The notes under the pieces were generated by a model that saw nothing but the letters and a program-made list of their open reading frames with translations, made no database searches and was not told the origin of the DNA. From NCBI GenBank assembly GCA_010093515.1, contig MU001682.1, forward strand, positions 7,997 through 71,996: 64,000 nt of DNA, read 5' to 3'. Source of the DNA: Lineolata rhizophorae (Eukaryota > Ascomycota > Dothideomycetes > Lineolatales > Lineolataceae). Positions 4,655-51,510 of the stretch are shown here, in pieces. Made by a program: the position numbers and the translations under genes. Numbering within the stretch: the first letter of the stretch is position 1; each line of letters starts with the position of its first letter.

Positions 4655-6064
4655 ATGGGCGCCGAATCACATCTCCCACCAGATCAAGAGCTGTACGTCA
4701 CATACCGCTCGCACAACTCCGGTAGCCGCATTCACACGGACACCACCATCCAGTCCGCACTGCTAGAACAGTACCCGGACAAGTGCCTCACCTGCACCCA
4801 TTGCGACCTGATCAAGTTTGCCGAAGAAGGCAACGCGACGGCCGCCATCGTCAAGGATGGCCCGCCGCGACTGTTCCGGCGCGACTTCGCCCCCGCTAAT
4901 AACACGATCAGACTTGCTGGTGACCGCGTTTTCGGGAGGCTGAACACGCAGGTCACCTTTGGCTGCTATGATTACGTCTGGACGGACCCGAACGGGCAGG
5001 AGCTCACTTTCCTCATATACGTTGTGGAAGGGCAGAGCAACCTGGGCGGCATTTGCGACCGCCGCTACTACATCCTTAAGGAGCCCGCCGAGGGAGAGGT
5101 CGTTGGCCAGGCATCCAGTGCCGCCGCTGACGAGCTGATCATGGCTGCGGGAATCTGGTCCGAGAGAAGTCATAACGAGGTGTGGGTCTTCGACCAAGGC
5201 AGATGGTTGAAGGATAAGGCGCTGTGGGCGGCCGTGCAGGATGCGGAGATGGACGACATCATCTTGGACGAGCAGATGAAGTTGTCTATCACGAGGGATG
5301 TGCTAGGCTTTTTCGACGCGAAGGATGTCTATGCGCAGTTTGGCACCCCGTGGAAGCGTGGGCTCATCTTCCACGGTCCACCTGGAAACGGCAAGACTAT
5401 GACCTTGAAAGCTGTCATGCGTATGCTGATGGCTCGCGAAGAGCCGATGTCGGTGCTCTACGTCAAGACGCTCGCACAGCGTTCGTTTGGTCCGCAGCAG
5501 TCGTGCCGTTCAATATTCTCAAAGGCCAGACAGGTCGCGCCGTGTCTGTTGATCTTCGAAGACATCGATAGTCTCGTCACCGACGCTGTACGCAGCTACT
5601 TTTTCAACGAGGTCGATGGACTGGAGATCAACACCGGAATTGTCATGATTGGGTCCACCAACAACTTGGACAAGCTCGATGCGGGCTTGTCGAAGCGTCC
5701 CAGCCGCTTTGACCGCAAGTACCGTTTCGACAACCCGCAATTTGAAGAACGGCTACGCTACTGCGAGTACTGGAGCTCAAAACTCTCGAGCCACCTAGCC
5801 GCCCACGTGACTTCGGCAGTGCCCCATCGCGTGGCGTCGCTAACGGAGGGGTTCAGCTTCGCCTACGTGAAAGAGGCATACATTTCGTCGTTGCTGATCC
5901 TGGTGCAGGAGTCAAGTACGAACGCTACCCCTAAGAAGTCGGAGGAGGATTTCAAATATGGCCGGTTTGGGTCCGTTCTTCAGCAGCAAGTTGCGTCCCT
6001 TAGAACTGAAATGAGCGAGGAAAATGAAAAGGCGGTGGAAAAGAGCAGTTCTAAGAAAAAGTAG
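4655..6064 (+). CDS. AAA-family ATPase (proteasome-activating-nucleotidase/BCS1-like fungal family)
   Basis: Single exon, 469 residues from the first in-frame ATG (4655). The frame is open back to a TAG at 4451-4453 but has no ATG in that stretch, so the N-terminus could be longer if an upstream exon is spliced on; 4655 is the conservative choice. A VWVFDQGRW segment precedes the AAA domain. Walker A is GPPGNGKT at about residues 241-248, Walker B LLIFEDIDSL near 298-307, sensor 1 is GSTNN, and KRPSRFDRK supplies the arginine finger. The C-terminus is Lys/Ser-rich. Members of this fungal family are annotated as AAA ATPases of unknown substrate. The ATPase core looks intact and active; the biological role is not predictable. 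Confidence 0.85.
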   Translation: MGAESHLPPDQELYVTYRSHNSGSRIHTDTTIQSALLEQYPDKCLTCTHCDLIKFAEEGNATAAIVKDGPPRLFRRDFAPANNTIRLAGDRVFGRLNTQVTFGCYDYVWTDPNGQELTFLIYVVEGQSNLGGICDRRYYILKEPAEGEVVGQASSAAADELIMAAGIWSERSHNEVWVFDQGRWLKDKALWAAVQDAEMDDIILDEQMKLSITRDVLGFFDAKDVYAQFGTPWKRGLIFHGPPGNGKTMTLKAVMRMLMAREEPMSVLYVKTLAQRSFGPQQSCRSIFSKARQVAPCLLIFEDIDSLVTDAVRSYFFNEVDGLEINTGIVMIGSTNNLDKLDAGLSKRPSRFDRKYRFDNPQFEERLRYCEYWSSKLSSHLAAHVTSAVPHRVASLTEGFSFAYVKEAYISSLLILVQESSTNATPKKSEEDFKYGRFGSVLQQQVASLRTEMSEENEKAVEKSSSKKK

Positions 6065-7265: not shown

Positions 7266-8798
7266 ATGGGCTCACAAAAGGAATCAGGCACTGGTAATAA
7301 TCCTGGCCAGCGCCGGTGGACTTTGAGCCAGATCTTGGGGATAGCGTCTGTATTTGCGATCGCGGCGCTACTGGCTTTCGCTGGATATGGAGGTGGCATA
7401 ATTACCGAATCCGTCCATCACTACTTGCTTGGCTCAGATTCTCCGGAGAGTAAAGCAATGAAGATTTTGACCAAAAATCCTCTAATAGGTAAAAGCCTCC
7501 AGCCCCAGTTCGAAGATAAAGAACTAACTGACGTTCACTCTAGACGGCCATAATGACCTGATGATTCTTATTAGATTCCTCTATAAGAACCATATATACG
7601 ACGACGAGTTCACTAAACCGTTTGAGGATGGAAGAATGGCCGCTCAAGTTGACCTTCCTCGTCTGGACCAAGGGAAGGTAGGAGGCGCTTTTTGGAGTGC
7701 TTTCATGCCGTGTCCCGAGAACGGATCGGACTTCTCAGACGAGAATTACGCCCCTAGTATGTCGGACCATCGTATTGGGACTGCTTTTTTCATGCATAGA
7801 TTCTCACGCTCTAGAAAGTCGTCCGCGCCACTCTTGAACAACTCGACCTCTTCCAACGCCTGCAGGTCAAGTACCCAAAGTACTTCACCCCGCCGGCTAA
7901 TAGTGCCGAAGCCCGCCACGCTTTCTCTGCCGGTCGTCTCATCTCGCCCACCGCCATCGAGGGTTTGCATCAGATCGGCAACTCGCTGTCTGCACTGCGC
8001 CTCTACCACACCCTTGGCGTCCGCTACGCAACGCTAACCTGGAATTGCCACAACATATACGCTGACGCCGCGCTCGTGTCTAACGATGAAGGTCAAACGG
8101 TCAAGTCCAAGCCACTCTGGGGCGGCATTAGCTCCGGTCCCGGCCGTCAGCTGATCTACGAAATGAACCGGCTGGGAATGCTAGTAGACCTATCACACGT
8201 GAGCGCGGACACGATGCGCGACGTGCTGATGGGGCAAGGGGCTAGAGGTGACGGCGTCCCCTCCTGGAACGGTAGCCTGGCGCCGCCAATATTCTCGCAC
8301 AGCTCCGCCTACGCACTCTGCCCGCACCCGCGCAACGTGCCTGACGACGTGCTGCAAATGGTTCGCGCGCGTAACGCGCTCGTCATGGTCAACTTTAGCC
8401 CCGATTTCATCTCGTGTGTCGCAAACGACGACCCGTCCGGGATCCCTGACTTCGTTGAAGCCAATGCAACTCTCGCTCAGGTCGTAAGGCACATTATGCA
8501 TATAGGCGAGCTAATCGGATACGACCACGTCGGCATCGGGACGGATTACGACGGCATCCCTACCGCGCCGCGGGGGCTCGAGGACGTATCCAAGTTCCCG
8601 GACCTTGTGGCTGAGTTATTGCGACAGGGCGTGGGCGAATATGACGTGGCTAAGGTTGTAGGGAGGAATTTGCTCCGGGTCTGGAAAGATGTAGACGAGG
8701 TTGCCGCCCGGTTGCAGCGGGAGATGCTACCGGCAGAAGATAATATTCAGCCTCTCCAAGAGGAACTCAATACGGAGGATGAGCTGCCGCTCGTGTGA
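7266..8798 (+). CDS. Membrane-anchored zinc dipeptidase (peptidase family M19)
   Basis: Three exons (7266-7488, 7544-7756, 7819-8798) give 471 residues; an in-frame ATG at 7215 would add 17. Intron 1 is 55 nt with a CTAAC branch site; intron 2 is 62 nt and the AAAG acceptor restores YAPIVRATLEQLDL. The N-terminus has one transmembrane segment (about 19-43), so this is probably a type II membrane protein. M19 metal ligands are all present: His77 and Asp79 (DGHNDL), Glu193 (TAIEG), His272 (VDLSHVS) and His306 (FSHSSAY), followed by RNVPDDVL and a GIGTDYDG motif. Family enzymes hydrolyse dipeptides, including D-amino-acid dipeptides, and human renal dipeptidase is the model. Catalytic set complete; expected to be active. 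Exact substrate unknown. Confidence 0.93.
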
Positions 8799-10375: not shown

Positions 10376-12481
10376 ATGCCTTGTTCTGTCCTTGGGAAGA
10401 GGACGCGAAGCGTCACTGAGAGCTCCGGTAAGTCTTCACGCGTACGCCCCTACCTCAATCGATCCATTCCTAACTCTCTGCTTAATGTAGGCTCAGCATC
10501 ACCTCAGAAAGAACGTGGCAGAAAACGCACCCAATTCGTCGTAGGCAACGACGAGAATGAGAACCCATTCATCACGCGCCAGACACGTTCGTCTGCCAGA
10601 CTTGGCCACGACGATGCACCCTCTGACGCGCCTTCCGACGGCTTCCAATCAGCGGGCAAAGAGAACAACTTGTCTTGCAGTGTACCAGCAAAGCATGGCG
10701 CTTTCGAGAGCAGGGTCGCTTTGACTCCGGGAAAGATCAACTCGCACTTCAAATCGACGAAGTTCCTTACTACCTCAGGAGCCAAATCTGTGCGAACGAC
10801 CTCACAAACTCCGACCCGCTACCACGATGCGCTTCTAGCCGATACTTCTGTTACACCGAAGCGTCGCGTTGGCTTATCGGGAAAGTCTCTCACACCTCGG
10901 AAATCTCAGACACCGGCAACTCCTAAAACCGCGCCCTCAGTTTACAATGAAGCGCGCCAGTTGTTCTCACAGACTGTCCTGGCGACTGATCTCGTCGGAC
11001 GAGAGAGCGAAAAAGACGAGCTCGAGGTATTCGTTATGGATCGCGTTGAGTCCATGTCATCGGGTTGTATCTACATATCCGGGCCTCCAGGGACTGGCAA
11101 GAGTGCCCTTGTTAGCCAAATCACTCGGCAGTTTGAGGGGATGAAAGTGGTTAAGTCAGCCTACCTGAACTGCATGAGTATCAAAAGTGGAGCCGACATA
11201 TACACGACGTTACTGGATGACTTCGGCTGCGATGCTACGGGGTTAGAGGCAAGCCCAATGGAGACACTACGCGAGGTGTTCTTTAAGCGCGAATCTGTTT
11301 ATCTCGTTACTCTAGATGAGATAGACCACATCTTGGACCTGGACCTCGATTGCCTCTACAAGATATTCGAGTGGTCTTTGCTCCCTAGCAACAGTCTTGC
11401 GTTAGTTGGCATCGCGAATGCCCTCGATTTCACCGACCGATTTCTCCCTCGGCTTAAATCCCGGGGTTTGAAACCTCAGCTCTTGCCATTTATGCCGTAC
11501 TCCGCTGCTCAGGTGGGGCGCATCATTACCTCAAAGCTGAAATCTCTCCTCCCATTTGGTTCGACAGCTCCTCGCGATTTCACGCCATTCATCCACCCAA
11601 CGGCAGTTCAGTTTCTCTCAAAAAAGGTCGCCGCTCAAACTGGTGATCTGCGCAAAGCTTTCGACATTGCTCGTCGTGCCATTGATTTGGTCGAAACGGA
11701 AGCAAGGGATAAGCAGGCGAGGGATGCTACTACGCAGCAGCCTCCAACGCCGACGCCGAGCCCCAGCAAGACGCCGTTGATTGCGAATATGAATTTGTCG
11801 TCCCCGCCGGGAGCACATTCTCCGATCAAGACTCCTAGTCGGAAGACGCCTCTTACTTCCGCACTAGGAGATCTGACCATCGAGACAGCACCTAGAGCCA
11901 CCATCTCCCACATCGCACGCATTACTGCTACTGTCTTCGGCAATGGCGCACAGCAGCGACTATTAGGACTGAACTTGCAACAGAAGGCAGTTCTGTGCGC
12001 TTTGCGCGCCCTCGAAAACAAAAAGAAAGAGACGGCGCATCATCAGCAGCGGCAACGCATTGCGACTGTAACATCAACGCCGACAGGCAAGCGTATATCG
12101 ACGCCCAGTACTCTATCAAAGCACGCTGCCACAGCTGCAGTAGTCGCTCCGACAATCCGCGAGCTTTACAATGCTTATTCGTCCCTCTGTAGACATGAAG
12201 ATATTTTTCACCCTCTTTCTGCTACCGAATTCCGCGACGTGGTGGCGAGCCTGGAAACCTTGTCCCTTGTGGCTATGGTTGAAGGGAAGGGCGGGTCGTT
12301 CGCCACTCCAACTACGCCAAGCAAGAGGGGGAGGGCGAAAGGCGGGTTTGCCACAAGCATCATTGAGGAGAGAAGAGTTGCAAGTGCAGTGGGGGCGGGA
12401 GAACTCGAGACTGCTTTGAATGGAGTTGGAGGCAGGATTCTGAAGAGGATCCTAATAGGAGCTGGCCTGGATGAGTTGTAG
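10376..12481 (+). CDS. CDC6: Replication licensing factor Cdc6/Cdc18
   Basis: Two exons, 10376-10427 and 10491-12481, give 680 residues. The 63-nt intron (GTAAGT, CTAAC, TAG) is a multiple of three without a stop, so the unspliced frame also reads through. The frame extends upstream with other ATGs, but SVLGKRTRS right after 10376 is the usual fungal Cdc6 start. An N-terminal disordered region has many CDK-like sites (LTPGK, VTPKRR, LTPRK). The AAA+ domain begins near residue 185: Walker A GPPGTGKS at 215-222, Walker B LVTLDEID near 289-296, then ANALDFTDRFLPRL (sensor 1 region). A winged-helix region follows after a Pro-rich linker. Cdc6 loads MCM2-7 on ORC-bound origins in G1. CDK regulation is likely by analogy with yeast. 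Confidence 0.95.
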   Translation: MPCSVLGKRTRSVTESSGKSSRVRPYLNRSIPNSLLNVGSASPQKERGRKRTQFVVGNDENENPFITRQTRSSARLGHDDAPSDAPSDGFQSAGKENNLSCSVPAKHGAFESRVALTPGKINSHFKSTKFLTTSGAKSVRTTSQTPTRYHDALLADTSVTPKRRVGLSGKSLTPRKSQTPATPKTAPSVYNEARQLFSQTVLATDLVGRESEKDELEVFVMDRVESMSSGCIYISGPPGTGKSALVSQITRQFEGMKVVKSAYLNCMSIKSGADIYTTLLDDFGCDATGLEASPMETLREVFFKRESVYLVTLDEIDHILDLDLDCLYKIFEWSLLPSNSLALVGIANALDFTDRFLPRLKSRGLKPQLLPFMPYSAAQVGRIITSKLKSLLPFGSTAPRDFTPFIHPTAVQFLSKKVAAQTGDLRKAFDIARRAIDLVETEARDKQARDATTQQPPTPTPSPSKTPLIANMNLSSPPGAHSPIKTPSRKTPLTSALGDLTIETAPRATISHIARITATVFGNGAQQRLLGLNLQQKAVLCALRALENKKKETAHHQQRQRIATVTSTPTGKRISTPSTLSKHAATAAVVAPTIRELYNAYSSLCRHEDIFHPLSATEFRDVVASLETLSLVAMVEGKGGSFATPTTPSKRGRAKGGFATSIIEERRVASAVGAGELETALNGVGGRILKRILIGAGLDEL

Positions 12482-12893
12482 CCGCGTTGCTTAGCATTTG
12501 TACCTGATTATTCTTAAGGGGGTTTTCAGTGCCTAGGAGGTGGGGTACCTGTGGGAAAGGCTTAGCAGGACTTTATCGCTTTAGCGTCTTCAGAGACTTC
12601 CGTCGTACTGGTATAGGCCCTCGAAATTTGAGGAATGGGACTCATTTGACTAGCTTGCCCGTGGCGAAGTTTCTGAAATCTGACATGTGCAGGCGAAAGT
12701 ATTGTCTAAAAACTGACTTTCTCGTGGTGCTGCAATGGCTGTGCGGATCCTCCCGCGCCACTGCCGAAGAAGGAAATCCTAATCACGTGACCGACGCGTC
12801 TCGCGTTCCGTCACGCCTCGCCTTGACTTCCCCAACGAATACCTCACTACCTCTCCTATACCATAATAGCACCACCGGCCCACGCCGAACACA
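12482..12893 (+). promoter_or_regulatory. CDC6-MSH3 intergenic region with CACGTG and ACGCGT boxes
   Basis: The 412 bp between the CDC6 stop and the MSH3 ATG hold an E-box-like CACGTG (12784-12789) and a perfect MluI box ACGCGT (12794-12799), about 100 bp before the MSH3 start. A perfect ACGCGT near a replication/repair gene suggests G1/S transcription by an MBF-like factor (inference). Confidence 0.5.
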
Positions 12894-15800
12894 ATGGACT
12901 CTGGGAGCAAGTCTTCCTTACCGTCATGCTCTCAACCTCGGAAACAGCAGACAATTTCGAGCTTCTTCGCCCCGAAATCCTCGCCGCCTCAACCTTCGTC
13001 GCCTGCTCATCCATTGAAACCGTCCGCTCCAGCATCTGCTCCTAATAAAAGCAATGCGCCCCGCTTACCAGCTTCTGATGACGGCGAATATTATGAGGAG
13101 CCTGTTGAGCAGCCGAAGCTGACTCAGAGGCGGAAACGCGTCCTTCACGAGGATGAAAGCGACGTCGAAAGTGGACTCCCGGGTTCAAAAAAAAACCGTA
13201 GCGTGTCTGGCGAAGTATTTACTGCCCCGAATGGGGATGCACCCGCACAAATTGGGTGCAAGACCCTTGAAGACCACCGCCAGTCCTCAGCTCGGCCCGG
13301 CACTGACGGCAAAACACCGAGGGCATCAGACAAAACGTCGAGGTACCTCTTCTCAAGCTCTCCGGTGCAGGAGGATGCTATGGAAGATGATGACAGCCCA
13401 GAGGCACGGAGAAGGAAGGAATGTCTGCATGAGAAATTCGTGAAGAAACTAGGCAGACCGGACAGCATTGCGGAGATCAAGAGGCGGAACCCTTGGGCGA
13501 CGGATGGAGTGGATGTTAACGATGAAGCAGAACAAGGTGAAGAGGAGGAGGAAGAGGAGTCACAACCGAAGACTTTGCCAAAGAAGGGAACTGCCAGGAA
13601 AAGCAAGCTCACTCCGATGATAAAGCAAGTCATAGACATCAAGAGGAAGCACAAAGATACGATCCTAGTTGTGGAGGTTGGATATAAGTTCAGATTCTTT
13701 GGGGAAGATGCTAGGGTGGCTGCAAAGGAGCTTGGGATTGTGTGCATACCGGGGAAACTTAGGTTCGACGAACGTACGTTGTACCTGCGTCTTAGCGTAC
13801 CATATTGTTGGCAGCTAACGAAGACCAGATCCTTCGGAAGCTCATCTTGATAGATTCGCGTCTGCCAGTATCCCGGTGCATCGACTACATGTCCACGTTA
13901 AAAGGCTCGTGCAAGCCAACCATAAAGTCGGCGTCGTCAGGCAGCTAGAAACGGCGGCTCTAAAGGCAGCGGGCGACAATCGCAATGCGCCCTTTGAGCG
14001 AAAGCTCACGAATCTCTATACCAAAGGCACCTATGTGGACGATCTCGATGGACTTGTTGGACCTGTTGCTGGACCGAACAGAGGAACCCCGGCTACAGGC
14101 TACCTACTATGTATTACCGAGACCAGCGCTAAGGGACTGGGAAATGATGAGAAGGTACATGTCGGCATAATCGCCGTCCAGCCGGCCACTGGGGATATCA
14201 TCTACGATGATTTTGAAGACGGGTTTATGAGAAGTGAAATAGAGACTCGCCTTCTCCATATCGCCCCTTGCGAGTTCGTCATCGTTGGGGAGCTGTCGAG
14301 AGCCACCGAAAAGCTAATCAAGCACCTTTCTAGCAGCAAGACAAATGTTTTTGGCGATGCTGCCCGTGTCGAGCGCGTTACAAAAGGCAAAACAACAGGA
14401 TCGGAATCCTACAGTCACATCTCCAACTTCTACGCCGAGAAGGTCAAAGCATCTCCCGGTGCCTGTCAGGAAGGACTTCCTAGTCAGATTCTGGACAAAG
14501 TTCATCAGCTTTCGGAATTGGTCACCGTTTGTCTGTCGGCGATGATAACGCACATGACGGATTACGGGCTAGAGCATGTATTTGACCTTACGCAAAACTT
14601 TCAGCCTTTCAGCGCCAGGTCGCATATGCTTCTCAACGGCAATACACTCACAAGCCTGGAAATCTACCAAAATCAAACCGACCATTCCGAGAAGGGAAGC
14701 CTATTCTGGGCACTGAACCGCACCCGGACGCGGTTCGGAGTGCGGCTTCTTAGGAAATGGGTCGGCCGGCCCTTGTTAAATAGGCCGCTCCTTGAGCAGC
14801 GCATAGTTGCGGTCGACGAAATAAAAGACGGAGAGCGGACGCGGCCCGTCGACAAAGCAAAATGGGTCCTTGGTGTAGTAAAGAGCGACCTCGAAAAGGT
14901 CCTTACCCGTATCTACTACAGAAAGTGCGGCAGAACGGAGCTACTTGGCTTTCTACAGACTTTGCAGCGAGTCGGAAACGAATACGCAGAAGCTACCTCT
15001 CCAGAAAAAGCAGAATTCAACTCCGAGACCTTGAGGGATGCAATCTGCAGCCTCCCAAAGATTTCACGTTTCACCACAGAGTATCTCGAGAGAATCAATT
15101 TTCAAGCGGCCAACACAGACGATAAATACTCCTTCTTTCGAGAAGAGCATGAGTCCGAGGGAATTACCGAGCACAAAGTTGGCATTGCAGCTGTGGAAAT
15201 GGAATTGGACGCACATCGCAAAGTAGCCGCCGAGAAACTCAAGAAGAAGCGAGTAGAATATGTCACTGTCGCTGGGATTGAATATCTCATAGAGGTTCCA
15301 AACAATAACCTCAAGGACGTTCCTGCTAGTTGGATCAAGCAGAGCGGCACTAAAAAGGTATCTCGGTTCCACACCCCCGGGGTATCTGCAATGATTCGCA
15401 AAAGAGATCAACACAAAGAAGCCCTTGCGGCGGCATGCGATTCCGCCTTTATTGCCCTCCTTGGAGAAATTTCAAGCAACTACGAGGCTTTTCGCGACTG
15501 CATTCAAGCTCTTGCGACCATTGATTGTCTGCTATCTCTCGCGGAAGTGGCCAACCAACCTGGTTATGTCCGGCCCATATTCGTCGATACTCCTAACATC
15601 CACATTGAAGGTGGTCGTCATCCGATGGTCGAACAACTACTTCTCGATCCTTACGTCCCAAACGATACGGAGCTTGATCCGAACGGCACGCGTGCACTTC
15701 TCATTACAGGGCCAAATATGGGCGGCAAGTCCAGCTATGTTCGACAGATCGCATTGATCAGTATCATGGCACAGATTGGGTCTTATGTTCCTGCTGATGC

Positions 15801-16556
15801 GGCACGGTTAGGCTTGCTGGATGCCGTTTTCACGCGTATGGGCGCCGCGGATAACATCTTTGCTGGTGAGAGTACCTTTATGGTGGAACTATCGGAGACG
15901 TCAGACATCCTAAAAGCGGCATCCCCTCGCTCGCTTGTCATTCTCGATGAGCTAGGCCGTGGCACTAGCACACACGATGGGGTGGCGATTGCGGAGGCTG
16001 TCTTGGCACATGTGATTCGAGAGACCAAGTGCTTGGCTCTGTTTATCACACACTATCAGAACTTAGCAAAGCTGGCAGACACTCTCATCGAACAAACTGG
16101 CGAAAATGCTGGGAGCGAAGTGCGTAGGCCATTGAAGAATGTGCATATGCAGTTCACGGAAAATGAGGAGTCAGGCAAAGAGATCACGTTTTTGTATGAA
16201 GTTGGCGAAGGAGTTGCGCATCGTTCGTATGGGTAAGTCAACATACTATATAATGTTTAATGATCCTGGCATAGTACTGAACATTCTCACAGGCTGAACG
16301 TCGCCCGCCTAGCTAATGTTCCTGAATCCGTCCTGCGGGTAGCGGCGGTAAAGTCCCGTGAAATGGAACAAAGTATGGCACGGAAGAAGTTGTCTGGCTT
16401 GTAAGTGCACCAAACACAAATCGCATTCACTGCATTCCTGTCAAGCTAACCACCAGATTACCCCGCAGGTCGAAGAGCATGGAATTGCTTCTTAGCTCCA
16501 GGGCCATGGACGGAGACGAGCTAGATCGTGCGCTTGCTAACATGGAGCAGCTTTGA
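12894..16556 (+). CDS. MSH3: DNA mismatch repair protein Msh3 (MutS-beta subunit)
   Basis: Four exons (12894-13773, 13829-16232, 16293-16400, 16469-16556) give 1159 residues, close to the family norm. Near the N-terminus [12 protein letters not shown] is a PCNA-binding PIP box. An acidic, low-complexity region is followed by the MutS mismatch-binding domain (KLTPMIKQV...[10 protein letters not shown]; its join across intron 1 gives [14 protein letters not shown]), connector, lever and clamp domains, and the ABC ATPase with Walker [10 protein letters not shown] at about 921-929 and Walker [13 protein letters not shown] near 997. Introns 2 and 3 split the C-terminal helix region. Msh3 pairs with Msh2 to recognise insertion/deletion loops of several bases and acts in single-strand annealing. 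All key residues look intact. Confidence 0.96.
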
Positions 16557-16751: not shown

Positions 16752-18974
16752 CTAGCGTTCAGCCGTAAGGGGCGGGAAGAGAACCTTGTCCTGTCCTTTG
16801 CTAAGCTCAACACTACTTTCTCCATAGGAGTTGTCCAGCATGAATTTCGCATGCTGGAAGGCTCTGCAATTGCCGTCTACTCCTAGCATGTCTAGGAGCA
16901 ACGTCATTTTGTTGGGCATAACAGGCTGCAGGAGGATGCCTGATAGCCGGAGTGCTTCGGTAATAAGATACACGCACTTGTTGACCTCCTCTGGAGGTGG
17001 TCTTTCCCAATCAAACTGGGTGCCACGGCCGACGCGGGACCAGGGTGCCACATGGTCAATGTATTTGTTTCCCTGTAGGAAAGATAAAGGTGAGTACTCG
17101 AACTAGTTTGTTCAAAGCTAATATGGACTTGTATGCTGTGAGAAATGCAACTTACGAGAAATAGTACGTCGACAATGGCTCTCACAGCACCGGAAACATC
17201 CAAAGCATCCATGCGAGTCGTAACCAATGCCGGCAGATCTCGCAATGCCTGCGTTATTTGACGCTCCATTGTGTCACTCGGATTCAATTCAGCTACTCGC
17301 GCATATTGCATAACAGCGTACCGAATACTCCAGATCTTCGGCCGTGTCACTCGGCTTACGAGGTTACCGAGTGTACCCTTGAGCACTTTCTTGTATCGCT
17401 CAATAATCCAGTAGTTAGAGTAGTCGGCATCATTCTCAATAGAGCCATCATGCACCATGTAGAATCGCATCGTGTCGACCCCGAAACGGTCTAGTGCAAA
17501 AAAGGGATTGACTACATTGCCGGTGGATTTAGACATTTTGAGGCGACCCAGTGTCCAATGTGAATGTGTCAAGATGTGCTTTGGAAGAGGTAGCGACAAT
17601 GCCATGAGAAAAGCTGGCCAGTAAATGCAGTGGAAACTGTCTACCCATTAGCACGCAAGGCCACCTTCGAATTATCGATGCCACAGAACTGTAACGCACC
17701 GAGAAATGTCCTTTCCAATGACGTGGACGTCAGCAGGCCAGCCCCCCGCGCTTTCATGGCCAGGAGCCCATGGATAGCCGACAATTGAAGCATAGTTGAA
17801 TAGGGCATCCAGCCAAACGTAAATTGTTTGCGAAGGATCACCGGGAACTGGTATGCCCCACGAAAGACGCTCGGAAGGGCGAGATATCGAAAGATCTTGG
17901 AGACCTTCTCTTACAGCCTTCTTTATTTCTCTATGCCTGAACGAAGGCTTAATCCAGTCTGGACATTCATTGCAAAAGCTGAGGAGGTCGTCCCTGAATG
18001 CGGATAGACGAAAATGATAGTTTTTCTCCGAGGTCCATTCGACTTCCTTTCCGGTTTCCATAGACGCCTAAAATAATAAACGCGACGTTAATATTTGAGG
18101 ATCAGTCAAGCATTCCGTTGAAGTGCCCTAACCATAATCTTGCGTCCACTCCGAGGTTCCACGATAAGCTGAACACCAGATTGTGGGTAAAATGTCTCGT
18201 CACTGACACAGTACCAACCCTCATGCTTGGACTTGTAAATGTACCCGCGATCACTAAGCAGTTGCTACATACACATTAGCAATCTCATTCGGGAGGTATG
18301 GCAGCAGCAGGGCAAAATGCATACCCAAGCATACTGTACAGCATCTTGGTGAGACTTATCCGAGGTGCGAACGAAATGGTCATTCAAGACATTAGCCTTC
18401 AGAGCCAGGTCCTAGGTTCAAAAGTTAGGTCGTTGTGATTAAGCACGCAAGAATGACTGCCCATATTTACTTTAAAGGTCTCTGCACCCCTGTCGCAGAA
18501 GGGTTTTGGGTCAAGACGGGCTTTAGCAGCGGCTTGCTGGACCTACATAGAAAGCAGCGCGTTAGCGTTAGGGTAACTCCCGGGATCTCATACGGACATC
18601 CCCACCTTCATGCCATGTTCGTCAACTCCTGTGCTAAGCACAGTAGGTATTCCATTTAGGTCCTTCCACCGTCGGAGAACATCAGCCAGGACCATCGAGT
18701 ACATGTGACCCACATGGGGATCTGCAAAAAAATACGTCAGGGGGGAAGGATGCGTAAAGAGAAAGCTAGTTGGAGACTACATACCGGCGTTTACGTAGAA
18801 AATGGGCGTGGTCACATAGTAGGGCTTGTCGGCAGTCGGTGAAGCCGTAGCGACGGCCCTGGAACAAGACACGAACAAGGAGCGCGCCGGGCAAACCCAG
18901 AGTCTCGTTGGCCACGGAGAGGGCAACGGCGACAACAATCTGGAATTGTAGCGGGAAAGTCTGTATGCGCGCAT
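16752..18974 (-). CDS. MSM1: Mitochondrial methionyl-tRNA synthetase
   Basis: Eight exons: 18974-18785, 18721-18606, 18542-18471, 18411-18325, 18264-18133, 18067-17700, 17636-17156, 17072-16752; 588 residues. Introns are 59-83 nt. The HIGH signature is ADPHVGH (residues 63-69), created across intron 1; the KMSKS loop is LKMSKSTGN near 354. DEHGMK, GKDISRFH and DADYSNYW are further class I MetRS landmarks. The first 45 residues are Arg/Ser-rich without acidic residues, a mitochondrial presequence. The exon 2 donor is uncertain: GTGGGG after DEHGMK fits homologues, whereas GTATGA 12 nt later is the stronger donor and would insert four residues. The enzyme charges mitochondrial tRNA-Met. It is tail-to-tail with MSH3, 195 bp between stop codons. 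Confidence 0.93.
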
Positions 18975-19954
18975 CGCTGCGGCGGCCTGGAATGCCGAGA
19001 CAAAGCTGCAACCCTGGTCCAAGGTCGCGAAAAGTAAAGGTCATCTCGAGGTCACGGGATTTGGCTGCTCCGGTATGGCCGGCCGCATAAACCATATGCG
19101 CAAAATACCTCGTGCCACTCTCGCGGTAGTGCTTGTAGCCCGATCCGCCATTTGCTGTAACTCCATGTTTCTTTTCGTGCTTTGTTCTGACCCAATATTT
19201 TAGATTTTGCCACCCTTGTTTGCCTTATCCAATCAGTCTCTTGAACTTCTATTCAGACCCATTTCCGGCCATGAAAGCAGCGCCATTGCCCCCACCATGT
19301 TCCGCGCCTTTTCCTGCTGTTTCTTTTAGTCAAGAATGCTCTACGAGGCCTATGCATGGCTTCAAATGTCGCTTTATTGAAGCATTGGTGGTTTGGGCCG
19401 AAAGGGCTGAGATAGGGTAACCTCCACGTAGATTGGCACATGGGTGTCAAGACGAGCCGTAATCTAAAGCCACTCACAACATCCGTCAGTGCCGTTCTGA
19501 ATAAATTTCCATAGGCTAGCATGAGGATATGAAGGCTACGTCGGGTCCCTGCCACCTAGCGTGTCCTAGAACTTGATCGTCACTTGCCTTGTCCCGCTCA
19601 ATTATCCCCCTTACGAATGAATACTCATCGTTGACTCCAGTTGAAACAGGGCAAGAGAACACACTGAATGAATTCCTTGTTATTATTTCCCAAAATGATT
19701 GAGTTATGCACTAGCTTCAATAGCCATGGCCGCTATGACCACCTCATTCTCTGTTCTATTCAGGCCTCTTTTGGGAAATTCTTTATTCGGCTCAAAGGCA
19801 CGGCCTATTCAGCAGAATCTATTTAAGGCTTCATCTCTGGCATCGTCTAGAGGGCTACTACCTTCAACTCCAGAAGACTCTCCCTTGCAATTTCCATCCA
19901 GTCAACCCTCTCGTTCCGTCCGGACGCCTTCTGTACTCGTCAACTTCCAACGCA
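18975..19954. other. Divergent intergenic region, MSM1 / pheromone precursor
   Basis: About 980 bp between two start codons. No conserved frame on either strand. The last 150 bp, CT-rich, looks like the promoter and 5' leader of the pheromone gene. Confidence 0.5.
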
Positions 19955-20629
19955 ATGAAAGTCACTGCATTTCTCACCGCCGCTATCCTGGCGATCTCTG
20001 CCAATGCTGCGGCCACTCCCTATCAGGATGATGCCACCGTGTTGAAGCGAGCCGCGGACGCTCTCGCGGACGCTCTCGCCGAGGCGGATCCTCAATACCC
20101 CCCGTACTGCCACTTGCCTGGGCAAAGCTGTTCCGAGAAGGAGAAGCGTGATGCTGAGGTTTACAAGCGCTTCTGCCATCTGCCCGGTCAGAGCTGCTCC
20201 AAGGCTAAGCGTTCCGCTGATGCCCTCGCCGAGGCTGCCGCCGAAGCCTCCGCTGTTGCGGAAGCTGGTGCGTTTGACACGTCTAATCTGACTCCCCGAC
20301 AACTAAGAAAATACCCTGCTAAGCCAAGCAACGCAGACTCTGAACCTGGCTACCCTCGCTTCTGCCACCTTCCGGGCCAGAGCTGCTCCAAAGAGAAGCG
20401 TGACGCCGAGGCCGAGGCTTACAGGCGCTTCTGCCATCTTCCGGGCCAAAGCTGCTCCAAGGTTAAGCGTGCCGCTGAAGCCATCGCCGAGGCCATCCCG
20501 GAGGCTGAAGCCGAGGTGTACAAGCGCTTTTGCCATCTCCCCGGTCAGAGTTGCTCCAAGACCCGCCGCGCCATTGTCGATCTCCTAGACGTCACCAAGA
20601 GAGCCGAGACCGAACTTGCGGGCATCTAA
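19955..20629 (+). CDS. Alpha-factor-like mating pheromone precursor with five peptide repeats
   Basis: Single exon, 224 residues. A signal peptide (MKVTAFLTAAILAISANAAA) is followed by five copies of a CHLPGQSC core: YCHLPGQSC once and FCHLPGQSC four times. Each copy ends in Ser plus a basic linker (KEKR, KAKR, KEKR, KVKR, KTRR), the Kex2 processing sites, and most are preceded by acidic xA/xE dipeptides (DAEVY, EAEAEVY) of the type trimmed by Ste13 aminopeptidases. This is the architecture of ascomycete ppg/MF-alpha precursors; the two cysteines and GQ pair match known alpha pheromones (A. fumigatus has WCHLPGQGC). Phe or Tyr replaces the usual Trp before the first Cys. The peptide should be secreted and sensed by a Ste2-type receptor. 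A longer spacer separates copies 2 and 3. Confidence 0.95.
   Translation: MKVTAFLTAAILAISANAAATPYQDDATVLKRAADALADALAEADPQYPPYCHLPGQSCSEKEKRDAEVYKRFCHLPGQSCSKAKRSADALAEAAAEASAVAEAGAFDTSNLTPRQLRKYPAKPSNADSEPGYPRFCHLPGQSCSKEKRDAEAEAYRRFCHLPGQSCSKVKRAAEAIAEAIPEAEAEVYKRFCHLPGQSCSKTRRAIVDLLDVTKRAETELAGI
20105..20554 (+). repeat. Five in-frame pheromone peptide repeats
   Basis: Nine-codon cores lie at 20105-20131, 20171-20197, 20360-20386, 20429-20455 and 20528-20554. The peptides are nearly identical while synonymous positions differ (CTG/CTT/CTC, GGG/GGT/GGC), so selection acts on the peptide. Spacing is uneven: 39, 162, 42 and 72 nt between cores. Confidence 0.95.
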
Positions 20630-21856: not shown

Positions 21857-24280
21857 CTAGGGGTAGCGTAACGGTGTGGGCTAGATTACGTCGCGATTAG
21901 CACCAGCTCCTTCTACAAAGACGTCGTAACTTACTTGTCCATTGTTCCCGACTGAATTTTCCCCCTGCTGTTGGTAGTACTTGGTATAGGGGCTCTCGCC
22001 ACGGCGAACTGCAGCTTCATTGACTTCAACACCAGGATGCCCGTTCTCCAAAATCATGCGACGCATAGTCGTAGCTTCGTTGCCGTCTTCTGCTAGTTTT
22101 GCTTTGGCTCCTGTTCGTGCGGAAAAAGGACTGTTCTGATTTAGTAGGTCGGAGTTCCATCAAAACCAGTGTGCAAATGACGCTTACCCATTCGCCTCTT
22201 TGTCTAGTTCCATGTATTCCTTGGCTGCACCAGGTCCACCGCGCTCTAGAAGGTACATCATGAAACGATGCGTCATGTCCTTCACTACTAGGGGTGGCAG
22301 ACGAGCATTTTGAGTAGCCTGATTGTGAACCTGCTTGATGCGCTGATAGTGGGCAGTTTCTGTCTCTTCGCTCGTCGGTTGTTCCAATTCGAATTCTAGA
22401 TAGTTTACCCAAAAGCGGCGTACATCAAGGTAGTACTGAGCATTCTTTTGGAAAACTTGGCGGGCTTCTTCCGGGGAGCCTTTGATCTTCCAAAGAAGCT
22501 TAGCCCACTCTGCAACAAGAGCGCCTTTGACGTAAATGGTGTAGGCTGGGTTGTCGGTGTCAATATAGGCTTTAAGGACTGTGATAGCTGCATCAAGTCC
22601 TCCATGACGACGTTCAACCTCCGCGAGTGCGACAACTGTCTCGACGGAGCCCGGAGTGGAAAGAAGGATGGCCTCGTAAATGGCCTTCGACACGTCGACA
22701 CGCCCACACATCTCCTCAAAAAGCGCGTAGTTGTGGCGGGCAGAGAGGCGCGAGATTGGCACATAGACGCAGCTTGCGCGCTGGTAAATAATGCGCACCT
22801 CCTCTTCCTTGCCAGCTTGGGCCATCATCCAACGCGCATAACGCAGCCAGAATTCCTCGTAGAGCGCCGCAGTAGTAAGGCACCGCTCATACAGGTAGAC
22901 TGTACGACGGTAATCCCCCTCAACCTCCTCAAAATCGAGGTACTTCCGCCAATTAACCAGCTCGTTTTCATCGAGGGGCAGGACGTGGAAATATGGGCGG
23001 CTGATGGATTGCTCGAACTGCCAGCGTTTGGTAGTCTCTAGTTGGGTGCGCGCATAGATCTCGGCGTGGAATTGCGAGATCTTTGTGCGGAGTTCTCGCT
23101 CAACTTCAAGATCCGTCAAGACCTTATTAGATGTCTCCCGGCCAATCTCTTCCTTGAAATGGCTGAGGATTTCGGACGGGGCTAGCTCGTCTGTAGGGCG
23201 CGAATGGGCGAGCTGCTGATGCCGCTCGAAGTAACGCGTGGACTGGTGTAGAGGGATATGCACCACCCGGTCCAAGACCGCAAATATGCGGTCTGTGGCC
23301 TCCATGCGCTCCTCAAACTCGAGGTACTTATCCCAGAACGTATGAGACATAAAGTCTAGACCGACACTACCGACTCCACGCTCAAACAGCCTGTAAAACC
23401 GAGATGAGTATCTCTCTCCATAGCAGAAAAATTGGATCCGGAATGGAATAGGGAAAAGAAAGAGGGGGAGGGGTAGGGGGTCATCAAACGCAGTATATAG
23501 TTTTTTTTTAGAACAGGTGCGTTTATAGGCACATGTTCTGCGCGGCTAACCAAATCGGCAGGAAGAGGGCACGATGTTGGACGGGGTAGGGGTATAGGTG
23601 CGCAGCGCAAGGGGGGAAAGTGAGTCTGAACGCAGATGGTGAGACGCGACGCCACGGCTGATCATGGTTCAGAGTGATTCTCTCACCCGTATCCGTATCT
23701 TATAGCGCAGCACGCGCGAGCATCATCGGAAAATTGCGGGGTCGCGATTGCTACCACGGTGCGGTCCATATCGGTTCGTGCTTGGTTGTTATTCAAGGGA
23801 AGAGGCTACACTAAAAACTTACTCTCGGATCACATCAGTGTCATGTGTGGTATCGACTTTGAAGCCGCAGTAGTTTGCCCAGAGTTCGACTCCAGTCGGA
23901 ACGCTCGCAACACCGCGCTCATAGACCATCTCGGCAGCCTCAGTACCGGCGATGGAGAACTCGAGGTCCGCATATTTCTTCCAATAGCCGTAGAAAAGAG
24001 GGAACTTGGCTAGGAAGGCATCGTAGATCTCACGGACAGCGGTGATGGCCTGCGGACTCGAGTTACGGTTGAGGCCGCCTTCGAGCGACTCGGCATGTGC
24101 AACAAGTTTCTCCCATAATTCCATTTCATCGGGAGCCCTCGACTTTGAAAACTTAAGCATCACAATTTTTCACCGCTTGCGACAAGGAACGCGATGGTAG
24201 ATAGAGATACTTACAACTTGATCGGCAAGGTCCCGAAGCTCAGGTTGGTCCTCTAGACCACCCAACGTGAACTGCACCAT
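21857..24280 (-). CDS. PRP39: U1 snRNP component Prp39
   Basis: Five exons (24280-24215, 24142-23823, 23390-22188, 22130-21935, 21880-21857) give 602 residues, normal for fungal Prp39. HAT-type helical repeats run through the protein: WEKLVAHAESLEGG, YGYWKKYADLE, ELWANYCGFK, FWDKYLEFEERM, LVNWRKYLDFE, FWLRYARWMM, RFWVNYLEFE. Intron 2 (23391-23822) is 432 nt, far longer than any other here; it joins VIRE to LFERGVGSVG. The last intron (GTAAGT, GCTAAT, CTAG, 54 nt) leaves an eight-codon final exon; without splicing the frame ends at the TAG inside the acceptor with another 17-residue tail. Prp39 helps U1 snRNP hold 5' splice sites at commitment-complex formation in the nucleus. Confidence 0.92.
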
Positions 24281-28521: not shown

Positions 28522-30586
28522 CTAGATCAACAAGAAGTCCCAGCCCTTCTGCCTCATCACGTCCCGCCAGTGGACGTTCTGCTTGTCGCCTCGCGCAAGC
28601 GCATCGTCATTGACGCGCCAGACATCCTTCAGAAGCTCCTTGACCCGACCGAAAGAGCCGAATTCGGCCGCTTCGCCGAGTCTAGAGATGCGCTCGTTCA
28701 GCATAACACGGAAAGGCGATCCGGGAGTTGCGATAGAACCTGCCATCAACAAGGGCCAGACAAGCGACCGGTCAAATCCGTCGGGGCCAGTGGGGATGAA
28801 GTCCATAGCCTCACTGAGCTGCGCTACCAAGTTGGTGATGCTGGGCGCCTGGCGGTCGAAGTCCGGAACGAGGCTACAGAGATATATGCGAGCTGCAATG
28901 CGGAAGACAGCTGTCATATTCCAGCAGAGCTGCTTCGGACGGATCGCACCGGTCGAAGAGTACACGTTGTCAACCGGACCGGACTCGTTCTCTGTGAAGC
29001 TGATTTGGTCGCCAAGTTGCTTGATGAGGTTGCAAAGGGCAACGTCGTCCATGCCCTCGAGTTTCAGAGCTTCCAGGCAAGCGATCTCCGAGATCAAGAA
29101 CATAACCTTGTCGTCACAACCCATAAGCTCAAGCAACCCAGCCGGGGACCGTGCAAGGTTCTTGTCCCTGTAGGTGTCTGCGAATACAGGAGCACGTCCC
29201 AACATGGTAGCGCCTAGGATGTCGATCCATGATGCCAGAGTCATGTTGAATGGCGGCTGACCACTAGTGCTGTTCAAGTTGACAAGCATCTGTGGAAGCT
29301 CAAGCTTCTGCACAAGCTCCGTGGCAGCCTGAAAATGATGATGCCACGGAATATCTGCAAGAGTGTCGTCTGGCCGTCCAACAGAGCACTGGAAGAATAT
29401 CATGCCCAGAGTCGCCTCGAGAATTTGCATATGGTCGGTGTCGCGGTTCAAGGCCGCGCAGAGTTCGGAGATGGTCGCATAACGGTGCCGGAGGATGTCG
29501 TTGTCAATTTGCTCGCCCTGAATGCGCTCCGTCGCCTTAAGGTGTTGTGCCGACATGCTCAAGCAGCAATGAAGGTAGCACTTGTTGGACTCCAGAGCCG
29601 GAAGAACAACATCGGAACGGGCAGAGCCGTGCTGGTTGACTTCAAGTATCGGGAAAATAAGCCGCAAGACATGGTCGATGAAATGGTCCAAGAGATGCCT
29701 GTCGCAGTCATCCACCTGAATAAGCGACTGATGTGACGGCGTCAGAGGGCCATGGTTGAATTCGAAGAAGTTGAAATCCAAGGGCTCCTCGGCAAATGAC
29801 TCCCTTCTGCTCTCGAAGTAGTCCTGTTGGATCCAGTTGTCTCCTTGGAAAGCAATCCCAGAATGAGTCGGCGCTTGAAAGGTGCTGAAGGATGATATAG
29901 ACGAGTCGCGTCGCAGCGGGATGTCGTTGACAAAAGTCTGGCGCTCCGTCTTGATATCGACTTCGTACGGCGGCAATTGCGGGTATCCGGGGTATGTGCT
30001 TGGGAACGGAGCTGCAAACATGCCGTTACCGCTGAACATGTCCGGAGTGGCCATCCCGTGGAACCCATTCTCCATTGACAACTGTGACTCGACCGACACG
30101 GCGCGAGTGTTTGCGATGCCATCGGAAAATGTGTCGGAAGTCGGCAGGGAGTGGCAGAGACTCGGCGGTGTGTGCGAGCTCATCGGCACAACCTGGGCTG
30201 ATTTCTCCGATAGTTTTGTCCGCTTGATGATGTTCTTGATTACCTCCTTCTGGTGTCTGCGCTGTTCGTTGTTGCTCCACCACATTGGCCTCTTGTACTC
30301 GCATTTTAGCCCGAGATTCTTGCAAGCCCTACACCCAGGCTTTCCTTCATCGCACTTCTTCCTTCGCAACCGGCATGTGAAGCAACCTGCATGTTCATGT
30401 TTCAGCAAATATCCCTGCAAACGCCGAGATCCCGGCAGGTGTTCAAGCGAGTTCGAACCAAAAGCACTGACCTGTTCGTGACCTCCGGTGCATCTTCGAA
30501 GCAGTCTGCTGCTTCGAATTTGACGAATTTGCAGGAGCAGCCATATTCGCAGATTGTTTCTGACTTGGGTTCGAGGCCGCCGACAT
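28522..30586 (-). CDS. Zn(II)2Cys6 transcription factor
   Basis: Two exons (30586-30472, 30386-28522) give 659 residues. Intron 1 (85 nt, GTCAGT to CAG) lies just before the zinc cluster: HRRSRT and GCFTCRLRRKKC join. Reading from the first ATG of the long frame alone would lose the true N-terminus and leave KHEHAGCF. The six cysteines are at 40, 43, 50, 57, 60 and 67 (CX2CX6CX6CX2CX6C), followed by EYKRPMWW and a basic helix region (RRHQKEVIKNIIKRTK), which places it in a C6 subfamily with a conserved WW after the cluster. The rest resembles the fungal-specific regulator domain: helical, with LNRDTDHMQILEATLG and GRAPVFADTYRD. DNA target unknown. The 4.3 kb upstream gap suggests complex regulation (inference). 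Confidence 0.92.
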
Positions 30587-34863: not shown

Positions 34864-37450
34864 ATGGCAAGTGCGCTCATGACGGCGAAAGCCAAGGGGG
34901 AAAGGAACGGAGGAGGGATCGCTGGTGACCTTTGACGGCCGTTTCTAACCCTCTGCAGGAGGCCTTCCAGTCCATGACGCCCATCACGCCGCTGGAACCC
35001 GGCGTGGAGATGTTCCAGAGCCGCAAGTACCAACCGTTGATCCAACCGAGAACGACAGCCCCGCGCCCGCTCTCAGAAGCGACCGAGATCTTCGACACCG
35101 ATCTGGATGGCGACGACTCGAGCGAATTCGAGGAGGACTCGCCCAAGTATAGCTTTGAATCCGTCAGTCTCTCTCCTTGCCCGACTCTAATTATTTTCTC
35201 GCTAATTGCCCGCAGAACGATGGCCGTCGAAGCCAAACCACCATTTCCACCTACGATGAGGTCTCGACGCCTCGGTCTGGGCGTCGGAGCCACTTCGAGC
35301 TTCACATCCACACCGAGCCGTCAAAGCCCGTCGAGGGACCCAAGGGGCCTCATCTCTTCCGCACTTCTCATGCATCTTCGGACTTCTCCTTCGACTACGC
35401 ACTGCAGATGTCGCCTTTGTTGCCCAAAGAATCTCCCTTGCGGGCACCAACGGCATTCCGGCGTCCCATGGATGATTACGTCGCCAATCCCTACGATGAC
35501 CCCACGGTTGACATGCCTCTCGACACGGCCGAGCTGCCATTCTGGTCGGCCCAGCAGGTTGCTTTGTGGATGGCCAATGCGGGCTTTGACCAGGGCATCG
35601 TAGAGAAGTTCGAGATCCACGACATCACTGGAACCGTCCTAATCGAGCTTCAGTTTGACCACCTTAAAGAGCTCGGCATCGCATCCTTTGGCAAGCGACA
35701 CCGCCTCTGGACCGAGATTCAAGCTCTGAGAGGAACGGACGGCCAATTTAGCCCGGTACAGACGCCCTTCCAGGATGTCGACAGTCCTGTGCATGATACG
35801 AAACCACAGAAGCGTCACCGTGACAAACAGCGGACCCGCCACCGCGCAGGATCTCCCGAGGATGTGAACACTCCCAACACTCCTGCGGGTAACCATCGCC
35901 GTCGAGGCCGAAAGCATCGTCAGGGAGGCGAGAACCAAGGCACCCCGTTGTCAATTGTTGCTATTGAACAGCTAGTGCCCAAGCCTCACAAATGCCATAA
36001 GGGTGAGAAATGCCCGAAGTGGAGGAAACAGCAACGCCAGCTCGCGAGGTTGCAAGAGGAAAACAGGGGTTTTCCAATATCTCCAGAGAACGGCGGGCAC
36101 ATCGTTATCTCCGGCGACCCTGGCAACCCGCATTCAGCCGACAAGGTTGTGGACAATGTGTATCGTCCGACTTCTGAAAACGTGCCGTCGCTAGTTGCCT
36201 CCTCGGATATCCTCGGGCCTGGCCAACTTCCGGACTTTGCACTTCAGGAAGAGATGCTCCGTTCACTGGAGTCCCGGGATCCGCAGGAGAATGTCAAGCA
36301 GTTCCTATCACTTCAAAAGATCGAACCCCCCGCAGCCTTGACGCATAGTGCCACGGCAACGCCTATTGTGGAGCGTCCGCCGACCCCACCTTTAGACATG
36401 TTTCCTCCTCTTCAGCCCCCTTCGAATGGTTCGGGTCCCCACAGCAATCTGAAATCGCTCCCGAGGCTCAGCATTCCTGAGTCGCAGAGCTCCAGCAGAG
36501 GCATTTACTCGGGGCGCGGCGATGGGTGTTCCTCCGCACTTGGGTTAGACCCTGACTCGGCGGTTTCACCCTGCCGGACGGCTATCACCGCCGTTGCGTC
36601 GCCTGGAGGGAGTCTGTACCGCTTCGGCACACCATGCTCTGAGATGGATGTTCCTGTTACGTCGGTGCCTCTTGGCCCAGTATCTCGCGATACGTCCCAA
36701 TCTGTACCGCCCAACATGCTTTTCCGTGATCCCATTGCTCGATCGGCATCACGTGCTACTGCTCGGCCATCATTTGTCCTTCCTTCGCTTAACGAAGGGG
36801 AGGTCTACGCTCCTCCTCCCCAGTCGGACGGTAACTCCACGTTCAATACGGAGACTACCGCTGTTGCCGAGACCGAAAGTATTTCGTTTGACAAGGAAAG
36901 GGCGTCGACGGCAGGCATCACATCTGTTACAGACCAAGCTGGGCATCAGAGACGCACAAAAGGCTTTAAGTACGAAAACGTGAACCACGCCGGTTGGATG
37001 AAGAAGCGGCGCACACGTCTCCTGCGCCACGAGTGGCAAGACCATCACTTCCGATTGACGGGTACACAGCTCGCCATGCACGAGAACGAGTTGCCATCGT
37101 CCGGTGCGATTGATACCATCGACGTTGATGATTATACCGTCGCATGCTCCTCCCTGGCAAGCAACAAGTTGGCTGCCAAGCTAAAGAGCTTAAAGATCGC
37201 CGGCGGCGCAGCAAAGAAGGATGGTTCCAACGAACCGATGGCTTTCACATTCCAACTTGTGCCGGCTGGTGGCAAGGATGGCAACAGCTCCGAACTGAGG
37301 AAGCTGGCAGTTATTGGTGGCAAGTCCTATCACTTCGCCACCAAAACGAGAGACGACAGGATCGAGTGGATGAGGGAGCTCATGCTTGCAAAGGCACTCA
37401 AGGCCAAAGGTGAGGGTTACGAGGTTAACGTAAATGGTGAGTCGCTTTAG
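34864..37450 (+). CDS. SAM- and PH-domain protein (Pob1/Boi-like polarity factor without SH3)
   Basis: Coding exons 34959-35162 and 35216-37450 are clear; the 53-nt intron joins YSFES to NDGRR. For the start I favour ATG 34864 followed by a GC-AG intron (34867-34958, donor GCAAGT, branch CTAAC), reading M|EAFQSMTPITPL, 813 residues; the alternative is ATG 34974 (807 residues) with the first intron in the 5' UTR. The SAM domain (FWSAQQVALWMANAGFD...LGIASFGKRHRLW) is near 170-240 and a C-terminal PH domain (HAGWMKKRRTRLL...RDDRIEWMRELMLA) near 660-795. Between them is a long disordered region with a basic CHKGEKCPKWRKQQRQ patch. Pob1 and Boi proteins act at growing cell tips with Cdc42 and exocyst; assignment to them is by domain order only. 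A possible donor (GGTGAGT) lies at the very end, so the last residues are uncertain. Confidence 0.85.
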
Positions 37451-42865: not shown

Positions 42866-42892
42866 CATCCATTTTGGAAAGTAGGTATATAG

Positions 42893-45134: not shown

Positions 45135-45216
45135 CAACAACTTTGGGTTAGTCGATCCGCCCTCTCCTTAAGCAGCAGTTCTGCTGTACAAGGACTCTTA
45201 TTGAAGTCGCCGTGAG
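45135..45216 (+). repeat. Direct repeat, copy A
   Basis: Starts CAACAACTTTGGGTTAGTC and matches copy B at 47856-47933 with about ten differences and one 4-6 bp indel. The pair brackets the kinase-like relic and the nuclease-like gene, 2.64 kb between copies. Confidence 0.7.
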
Positions 45217-47855: not shown

Positions 47856-47933
47856 CAACAACTTTGGGTTAGTCAATCCGCCCTTTAAGCAGTAGTCTTG
47901 CTGTACAAGGGCTCTTATTGCAGTCGCCGTAAG
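47856..47933 (+). repeat. Direct repeat, copy B
   Basis: Second copy of the repeat at 45135; shares CAACAACTTTGGGTTAGTC, the GCTGTACAAG core and CTCTTATTG(C/A)AGTCGCCGT. Confidence 0.7.
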
Positions 47934-51379: not shown

Positions 51380-51510
51380 CTACCAAATAATTTTGGTAGT
51401 AGTAATTTCGATGGCTAATTGGACCTCGATTGACCTAAAAACCAAGACTCTGAACCCTAATAAAAATTCCGCCTCAAATAAAACATAAACACCGAACCGA
51501 ACCGACCCTA
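51380..51510. repeat. Third copy of the 40.8-kb element arm
   Basis: Carries CTACCAAATAATTTTGGTAG, then CAAGACTCTGAACCCTAA and AACCGACCCTATTGTAGACC, matching the right arm at 41571-41670 at many positions. Diverged. Confidence 0.5.

What the first reader, a model, noticed from the sequence alone, without database searches (positions are those of the whole stretch)
19955..20629. Pheromone precursor with five copies of an unusual (F/Y)CHLPGQSC peptide
The gene is a complete alpha-type pheromone precursor. All five peptides keep the CHLPGQSC core while codons drift, showing peptide-level selection. The residue before the first Cys is Phe or Tyr, whereas the ascomycete alpha pheromones I know have Trp there. 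Basic residues (YKR, YRR) also directly precede the core in three copies, so Kex2 could cut on both sides and release a very short peptide. The first copy (PPYCHLPGQSC) differs and may be a second pheromone form.
Basis: partly seen in the sequence, partly recalled or inferred. Interest (0 to 1): 0.8.

Follow-up and report, generated by a model that had tools for sequence, protein, structure and literature searches.

The report
Ordinary fungal alpha-type mating pheromone precursor
This looks like a normal fungal gene that makes several copies of a short mating-signal peptide, and an almost identical peptide has already been reported from another fungus, so it is a new example of a known thing.

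Summary
Window 19955-20629 (+) is an open frame of 224 codons with five copies of CHLPGQSC, preceded by Tyr once and Phe four times. All nucleotide differences among the cores are synonymous (8 of 24 columns vary). The reading as an alpha-type (Ste2-class) pheromone precursor is well supported; the claimed novelty is not. RFCHLPGQGCSK was printed as a candidate pheromone of Xylona heveae in 2019 (PMC6339444, passages), and Leotiomycete repeats with Arg before the Cys are known (PMC10569646, passages). (2) Two layouts in one precursor: copies 2, 4 and 5 follow YKR/YRR directly (Kex2 release), copies 1 and 3 follow long Ste13-type dipeptide runs ending AEAD...YPP/YPR. (3) Four one-mismatch MAT1-1-1 boxes lie within 706 bases upstream, unusual against shuffled motifs, though another place in the window is denser, so this is weak support. 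Receptor, proteases and organism could not be checked because no genome is held. Verdict: new member of a known kind, low interest.

The parts
19955..20629 (+). alpha-type pheromone precursor gene, 224 codons unspliced, 201 residues if the candidate intron is removed
20268..20336 (+). candidate in-frame intron, 69 nt, GTGCGT...CGCAG, with CTAAG-type branch candidates
   Evidence: GC3 0.39 against 0.68 in the rest, Ala+Glu+Asp 17% against 35%; no RNA data
19955..20008 (+). signal-peptide-like start (residues 1-18, A-N-A before the presumed cut)
   Evidence: most hydrophobic 11-residue stretch starts at residue 4 (mean Kyte-Doolittle 2.29; best beyond residue 30 is 1.0); no signal-peptide program was available
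20105..20131 (+). peptide copy 1, YCHLPGQSC, after seven X-A/X-P dipeptides and QYPP, no basic residue in front
20171..20197 (+). peptide copy 2, FCHLPGQSC, directly after YKR
20360..20386 (+). peptide copy 3, FCHLPGQSC, after YPR; nine X-A dipeptides and DSEPGYPR in front if spliced
20429..20455 (+). peptide copy 4, FCHLPGQSC, directly after YRR
20528..20554 (+). peptide copy 5, FCHLPGQSC, directly after YKR
19249..19256 (+). CTATTCAG, one mismatch to the Penicillium MAT1-1-1 box CTATTGAG (candidate site)
19642..19648 (+). TGAAACA, candidate Ste12 pheromone response element (motif recalled)
   Evidence: 3 in the window against 7.6 expected
19716..19723 (-). CTATTGAA, one mismatch to CTATTGAG (candidate site)
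19756..19763 (+). CTATTCAG, candidate MAT1-1-1 site
19805..19812 (+). CTATTCAG, candidate MAT1-1-1 site

Best explanation
The gene encodes the alpha-type sexual pheromone precursor of a filamentous ascomycete. After removal of one short intron and entry into the secretory pathway, a Kex2-type protease cuts after KR/RR. This frees copies 2, 4 and 5 on both sides. A Kex1-type carboxypeptidase trims C-terminal basic residues, giving a peptide with the core FCHLPGQSC (9 residues, perhaps with a Ser-Lys-x tail) that can close a disulfide ring and acts on a Ste2-class receptor of the opposite mating type. Copies 1 and 3 sit behind runs of X-A/X-P dipeptides, the substrate of a Ste13-type dipeptidase, and would mature by that route, copy 3 perhaps also by a cut after Pro-Arg. 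Shown here: the ORF, repeats, cut-site pattern, synonymous-only drift, splice-site-like ends and motif cluster. Inferred: splicing, secretion, cutting, disulfide, receptor and mating role.
For: Frame with hydrophobic start, five cores and a KR/RR after each of them. All core differences are synonymous. The core with PGQ and two Cys differs by one residue from the printed Xylona heveae candidate RFCHLPGQGCSK and resembles WCTRPGQGC, which activates its receptor in yeast. X-A dipeptides follow five of the KR/RR cuts, as in the family. An intron also occurs in the Paracoccidioides pheromone gene. Upstream are 4 one-mismatch MAT1-1-1 boxes in 706 bases; of 400 letter-shuffled motifs 1 reached 3 in 300 bp and 0 reached 4 in 750 bp.
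Against: No pheromone profile was matched in Pfam: the 9 hits at E up to 1 are all below their cut-offs and of unrelated kinds. No Ste2, Kex2, Ste13 or MAT gene was recognised in the 30 window references scanned, and the genome is not held. The promoter has no exact CTATTGAG; the window total of 49 near-matches is chance level (46.5 expected); the region 40.3-41.6 kb is denser (up to 6 in 750 bp); and the 300- and 750-bp spans were chosen after seeing the sites.
Confidence: 0.93

Rival explanations
1. A Kex2-processed repeat protein (KEP) whose peptide has another role, such as growth or host signalling, and not mating.
For: Other fungal KEPs have the same architecture and no link to sex (PMC6339444, passages). 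Genome and receptor were not available.
Against: The peptide itself, not only the architecture, is one residue from the printed Xylona candidate and has the two-Cys, PGQ pattern of Paracoccidioides and Leotiomycete alpha pheromones. An additional non-mating role is not excluded.
Confidence: 0.05
2. A ribosomal peptide natural product (ustiloxin/dikaritin type) made from a repeated core.
For: Repeated core between Kex2 sites; Tyr beside the core in copy 1.
Against: No hit to the tailoring family (UstYa/DUF3328, name recalled) in the 30 window references scanned. Four of five peptides have no Tyr between the cut site and the core. The core matches pheromones.
Confidence: 0.01
3. A pseudogene or unexpressed relic.
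For: No expression data; copies 1 and 3 lack the dibasic site seen directly before the others.
Against: Frame open with or without the intron and synonymous-only drift across all five cores.
Confidence: 0.02

Closest known systems
Xylona heveae candidate alpha pheromone, motif RFCHLPGQGCSK (PMC6339444; passages read)
   Same: Arg-Phe before the first Cys, CHLPGQ core, second Cys followed by Ser-Lys
   Different: Gly where this gene has Ser before the second Cys; the whole Xylona precursor could not be compared (it is in a supplement)
Alpha pheromone of Paracoccidioides/Histoplasma, WCTRPGQGC (PMC3464258; passages read)
   Same: nine residues, two Cys at the same spacing, PGQ, Kex2 site; the Paracoccidioides gene also appears to have one short intron (79 bp)
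   Different: Trp first; one copy per precursor
Leotiomycete alpha factors such as WCGRPGQPC and RCGHPGQPCG (PMC10569646; passages read)
   Same: repeated two-Cys PGQ peptides between Kex and Ste13 sites; non-Trp first residues occur
   Different: other residues after the first Cys; CHLPGQ does not occur in that paper's main text (one search lists only PMC6339444)
Two-Cys alpha pheromones of 13 non-Pleosporales Dothideomycetes (PMC6339444)
   Same: two conserved Cys
   Different: the sequences are in a figure that is not held, so identity with this peptide cannot be ruled out

Membership tests
Ascomycete alpha-type (Ste2-class) pheromone precursor | N-terminal secretion signal | tested here: met
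   hydrophobic stretch from residue 4 and A-N-A before residue 19; simple hydropathy only
Ascomycete alpha-type (Ste2-class) pheromone precursor | repeats of a conserved 9-14 residue peptide | tested here: met
   five copies
Ascomycete alpha-type (Ste2-class) pheromone precursor | Kex (KR/RR/KK) and/or Ste13 (XA/XP) sites flanking the repeats | tested here: met
   KR or RR after 5 of 5 copies and directly before 3 of 5; X-A/X-P runs in front of copies 1 and 3, but separated from the Cys core by QYPPY and DSEPGYPRF
Ascomycete alpha-type (Ste2-class) pheromone precursor | GQ or PG turn dipeptide in the peptide | tested here: met
   PGQ in 5 of 5
Ascomycete alpha-type (Ste2-class) pheromone precursor | match to a curated pheromone profile (not a defining criterion in the papers read) | tested here: not met
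   no pheromone model among the 9 Pfam hits at E up to 1
Ascomycete alpha-type (Ste2-class) pheromone precursor | activates a Ste2 receptor | not testable with these tools
   no genome held
Ascomycete alpha-type (Ste2-class) pheromone precursor | control by mating-type factors | tested here: inconclusive
   4 one-mismatch MAT1-1-1 boxes upstream, but no exact box, a denser place elsewhere in the window and no expression data
Ustiloxin/dikaritin RiPP precursor | neighbouring UstYa-type tailoring gene | tested here: inconclusive
   none among the 30 window references scanned with Pfam; most of the 225 open frames were not scanned

The most novel reading that the evidence does not exclude
One precursor matures its pheromone by two different routes. 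In copies 2, 4 and 5 a Kex2 site (YKR, YRR) stands between an old Ste13 dipeptide run and the peptide, so Ste13 is bypassed and FCHLPGQSC is released directly. Copies 1 and 3 keep an ancestral Ste13 layout (AEAD...YPP/YPR) and yield longer forms such as QYPPYCHLPGQSC. The gene would be caught partway through a switch from Ste13-dependent to Kex2-only maturation, secreting more than one pheromone form.
Probability: 0.35. Interest if true: 0.35.

Novelty: new member of a known kind. Interest (0 to 1): 0.18.

Why it matters
It adds a member to the Phe-first, CHLPGQ branch of alpha pheromones, which in the papers reached here is printed for one Xylonomycete, and it shows two N-terminal processing layouts inside one gene. 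Useful for annotation and mating tests in the source fungus; it does not change how the system is understood. Variable use of Kex and Ste13 sites is already described for Ceratocystidaceae (PMC13037118, passages, section 13).

Tried and rejected
Whole-genome search for Ste2: no genome is held. Relatives in the prokaryote and viral collections, by a degenerate core pattern: 10 stretches in genome contigs, each with one match and one in-frame core, in records titled bacterial or archaeal, taken as chance; 0 in viral contigs. Neither collection holds fungi as such. tRNA and Rfam searches gave nothing that would place the organism. Martin et al. 2011, the survey cited by the papers, is not held. 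A search for pheromone loci near MSH3 or methionyl-tRNA synthetase listed 0 papers. The Cladosporium paper (passages) says no pheromone genes were predicted there; the Aureobasidium paper (passages) printed no pheromone sequence in what I saw. A search for Kex2 cutting at Pro-Arg gave no passage on it; that Kex2 cuts Pro-Arg in the K1 killer preprotoxin is recalled. The weak Pfam toxin-like hits (best E 0.00045, all below cut-off) were rejected as chance matches.

Full report
Observation. The frame at 19955-20629 (+) has 224 codons; 19955 is its first ATG, in a stop-to-stop frame from 19739. It contains five copies of CHLPGQSC, at residues 52, 74, 137, 160 and 193. The window holds no other match to the core at up to 2 mismatches (5 matches; 0.01 expected). 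The residue before the core is Tyr in copy 1 and Phe in copies 2-5. Among the 24 nucleotide columns of the core, 8 vary and all changes are synonymous (48 synonymous, 0 non-synonymous pairwise differences). The Ser after the second Cys is fixed (5 of 5) and the next residue is Lys in 4 of 5; the one after that is K, A, E, V, T without gaps. If copy 1 carries a one-residue insertion, its residue there is E, as in copy 3. This marks the probable edge of the selected unit near SC-S-K.

A likely intron. Codons 105-127 do not look like the rest. The stretch 20268-20336 begins GTGCGT, ends CGCAG, is 69 nt (a multiple of three) and holds ACTAAG and GCTAAG before its end. It is the only in-frame candidate of the two that my pattern found in the ORF. 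Its third-codon-position GC is 0.39 against 0.68 in the rest, and Ala+Glu+Asp make up 17% of its residues against 35%. Splicing gives 201 residues and places AEADSEPGYPR before copy 3, which resembles AEADPQYPP before copy 1. The Paracoccidioides pheromone gene also appears to have one intron (PMC3464258, passages). No RNA data were available, so this is an inference.

Processing. Cutting in silico after KR/RR and trimming C-terminal basic residues gives FCHLPGQSCSK-x from copies 2, 4 and 5 without any help from Ste13. Their spacers still contain X-A dipeptides (DAEV, DAEAEA, AAEAIAEAIPEAEAEV) but end in Y-K-R or Y-R-R. Copy 1 gives QYPPYCHLPGQSCSEKE after seven dipeptides. Copy 3 gives DSEPGYPRFCHLPGQSCSKE after nine dipeptides in the spliced form, or a 41-residue product if unspliced. 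A further cut after Pro-Arg would free FCHLPGQSC from copy 3; that Kex2 cuts Pro-Arg in the K1 killer preprotoxin is recalled. So two layouts coexist: 2, 4, 5 against 1, 3. Whether and how the Ser-Lys-x tail is trimmed is unknown.

Control region. The Penicillium chrysogenum MAT1-1-1 factor binds CTATTGAG in vitro, and the pheromone precursor gene ppg1 is among its targets (PMC10512297, passages). The 706 bases before the ATG hold four one-mismatch matches: CTATTCAG at 19249, 19756 and 19805, and CTATTGAA at 19716 on the minus strand. All three CTATTCAG of the window lie here, though 26 of 100 shuffles also give three or more in the window. Of 400 letter-shuffled motifs, 1 reached 3 hits in the proximal 300 bp and none reached 4 in 750 bp; 0.8% of 300-bp and 2.5% of 750-bp stretches of the window reach those counts. 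Against this: no exact box, a chance-level window total (49 against 46.5), a denser place at 40.3-41.6 kb (up to 4 in 300 bp and 6 in 750 bp) and spans chosen after seeing the sites. One TGAAACA (recalled Ste12 element) lies at 19642; the window has three against 7.6 expected. I treat this as weak support.

Surroundings. Pfam places a CDC6/ORC-type ATPase at 10376-12481, MutS domains over 12870-16236 (probably MSH3, inferred), methionyl-tRNA synthetase pieces on the minus strand at 16904-18067, PRP39 on the minus strand at 22184-23350, a fungal transcription factor domain on the minus strand at 28522-30285, a SAM-PH protein at 35408-37450 and a DGAT-type acyltransferase on the minus strand at 38223-39239; also an AAA ATPase at 4655-6064 and an M19 dipeptidase at 7815-8795. 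I scanned 30 references (29 distinct frames, the pheromone among them), out of 225 stop-to-stop frames of at least 90 residues, so the annotation is partial. No receptor, pathway protease or MAT gene was recognised.

Known or new. A full-text search for CHLPGQ listed one paper, PMC6339444. Its passages report for Xylona heveae 'the conserved RFCHLPGQGCSK motif' as a putative alpha pheromone, and two-Cys pheromones in 13 non-Pleosporales Dothideomycetes. A search for LPGQSC and five other fragments listed that paper and PMC10569646 only; in the latter, repeats include RCGHPGQPCG and CKYVGQGCW, so Trp before the first Cys is not a rule (passages). Genes with only Kex sites, only Ste13 sites or both are described in Ceratocystidaceae (PMC13037118, section 13). 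The exact string CHLPGQSC did not appear, but figures, supplements and most subscription papers were out of reach.

Verdict. An ordinary alpha-type pheromone precursor, a new member of a known kind. The point of modest interest is the mixed processing layout inside one precursor.

Noticed in passing
window 42890-43792: Nested inverted repeats: arms 42890-42971 and 43711-43792 are 98% complementary, with further arms inside. It looks like a short inverted-repeat transposon in a low-GC stretch.
   Followed up: partly
window 40001-44000, 50001-52000, 54001-56000: RIP-like dinucleotide bias (composite index +0.29, +0.69, +0.57, +0.32; also +0.13 at 2001-4000; the other 2-kb steps are negative). 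Short diverged repeats are shared between 41.4-41.6 kb and 51.4-52.1 kb.
   Followed up: partly
window 40767-41667: A second inverted-repeat pair (41-nt arms, 85% complementary, 819 nt apart), lying where near-matches to CTATTGAG are densest in the window.
   Followed up: no
window 45135-45216 and 47856-47933: Two similar stretches 2.7 kb apart (97% over 29 and 84% over 56 bases), possibly a duplicated piece.
   Followed up: no
window 60906-63998: Open frame of 1031 codons reaching the window's edge, without a Pfam match at E up to 0.001.
   Followed up: no
window 20132-20149 and 20555-20572: The residue between Ser-Lys and the final dibasic site varies strongly among copies while everything before it is nearly fixed, which marks the likely end of the selected peptide.
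   Followed up: partly
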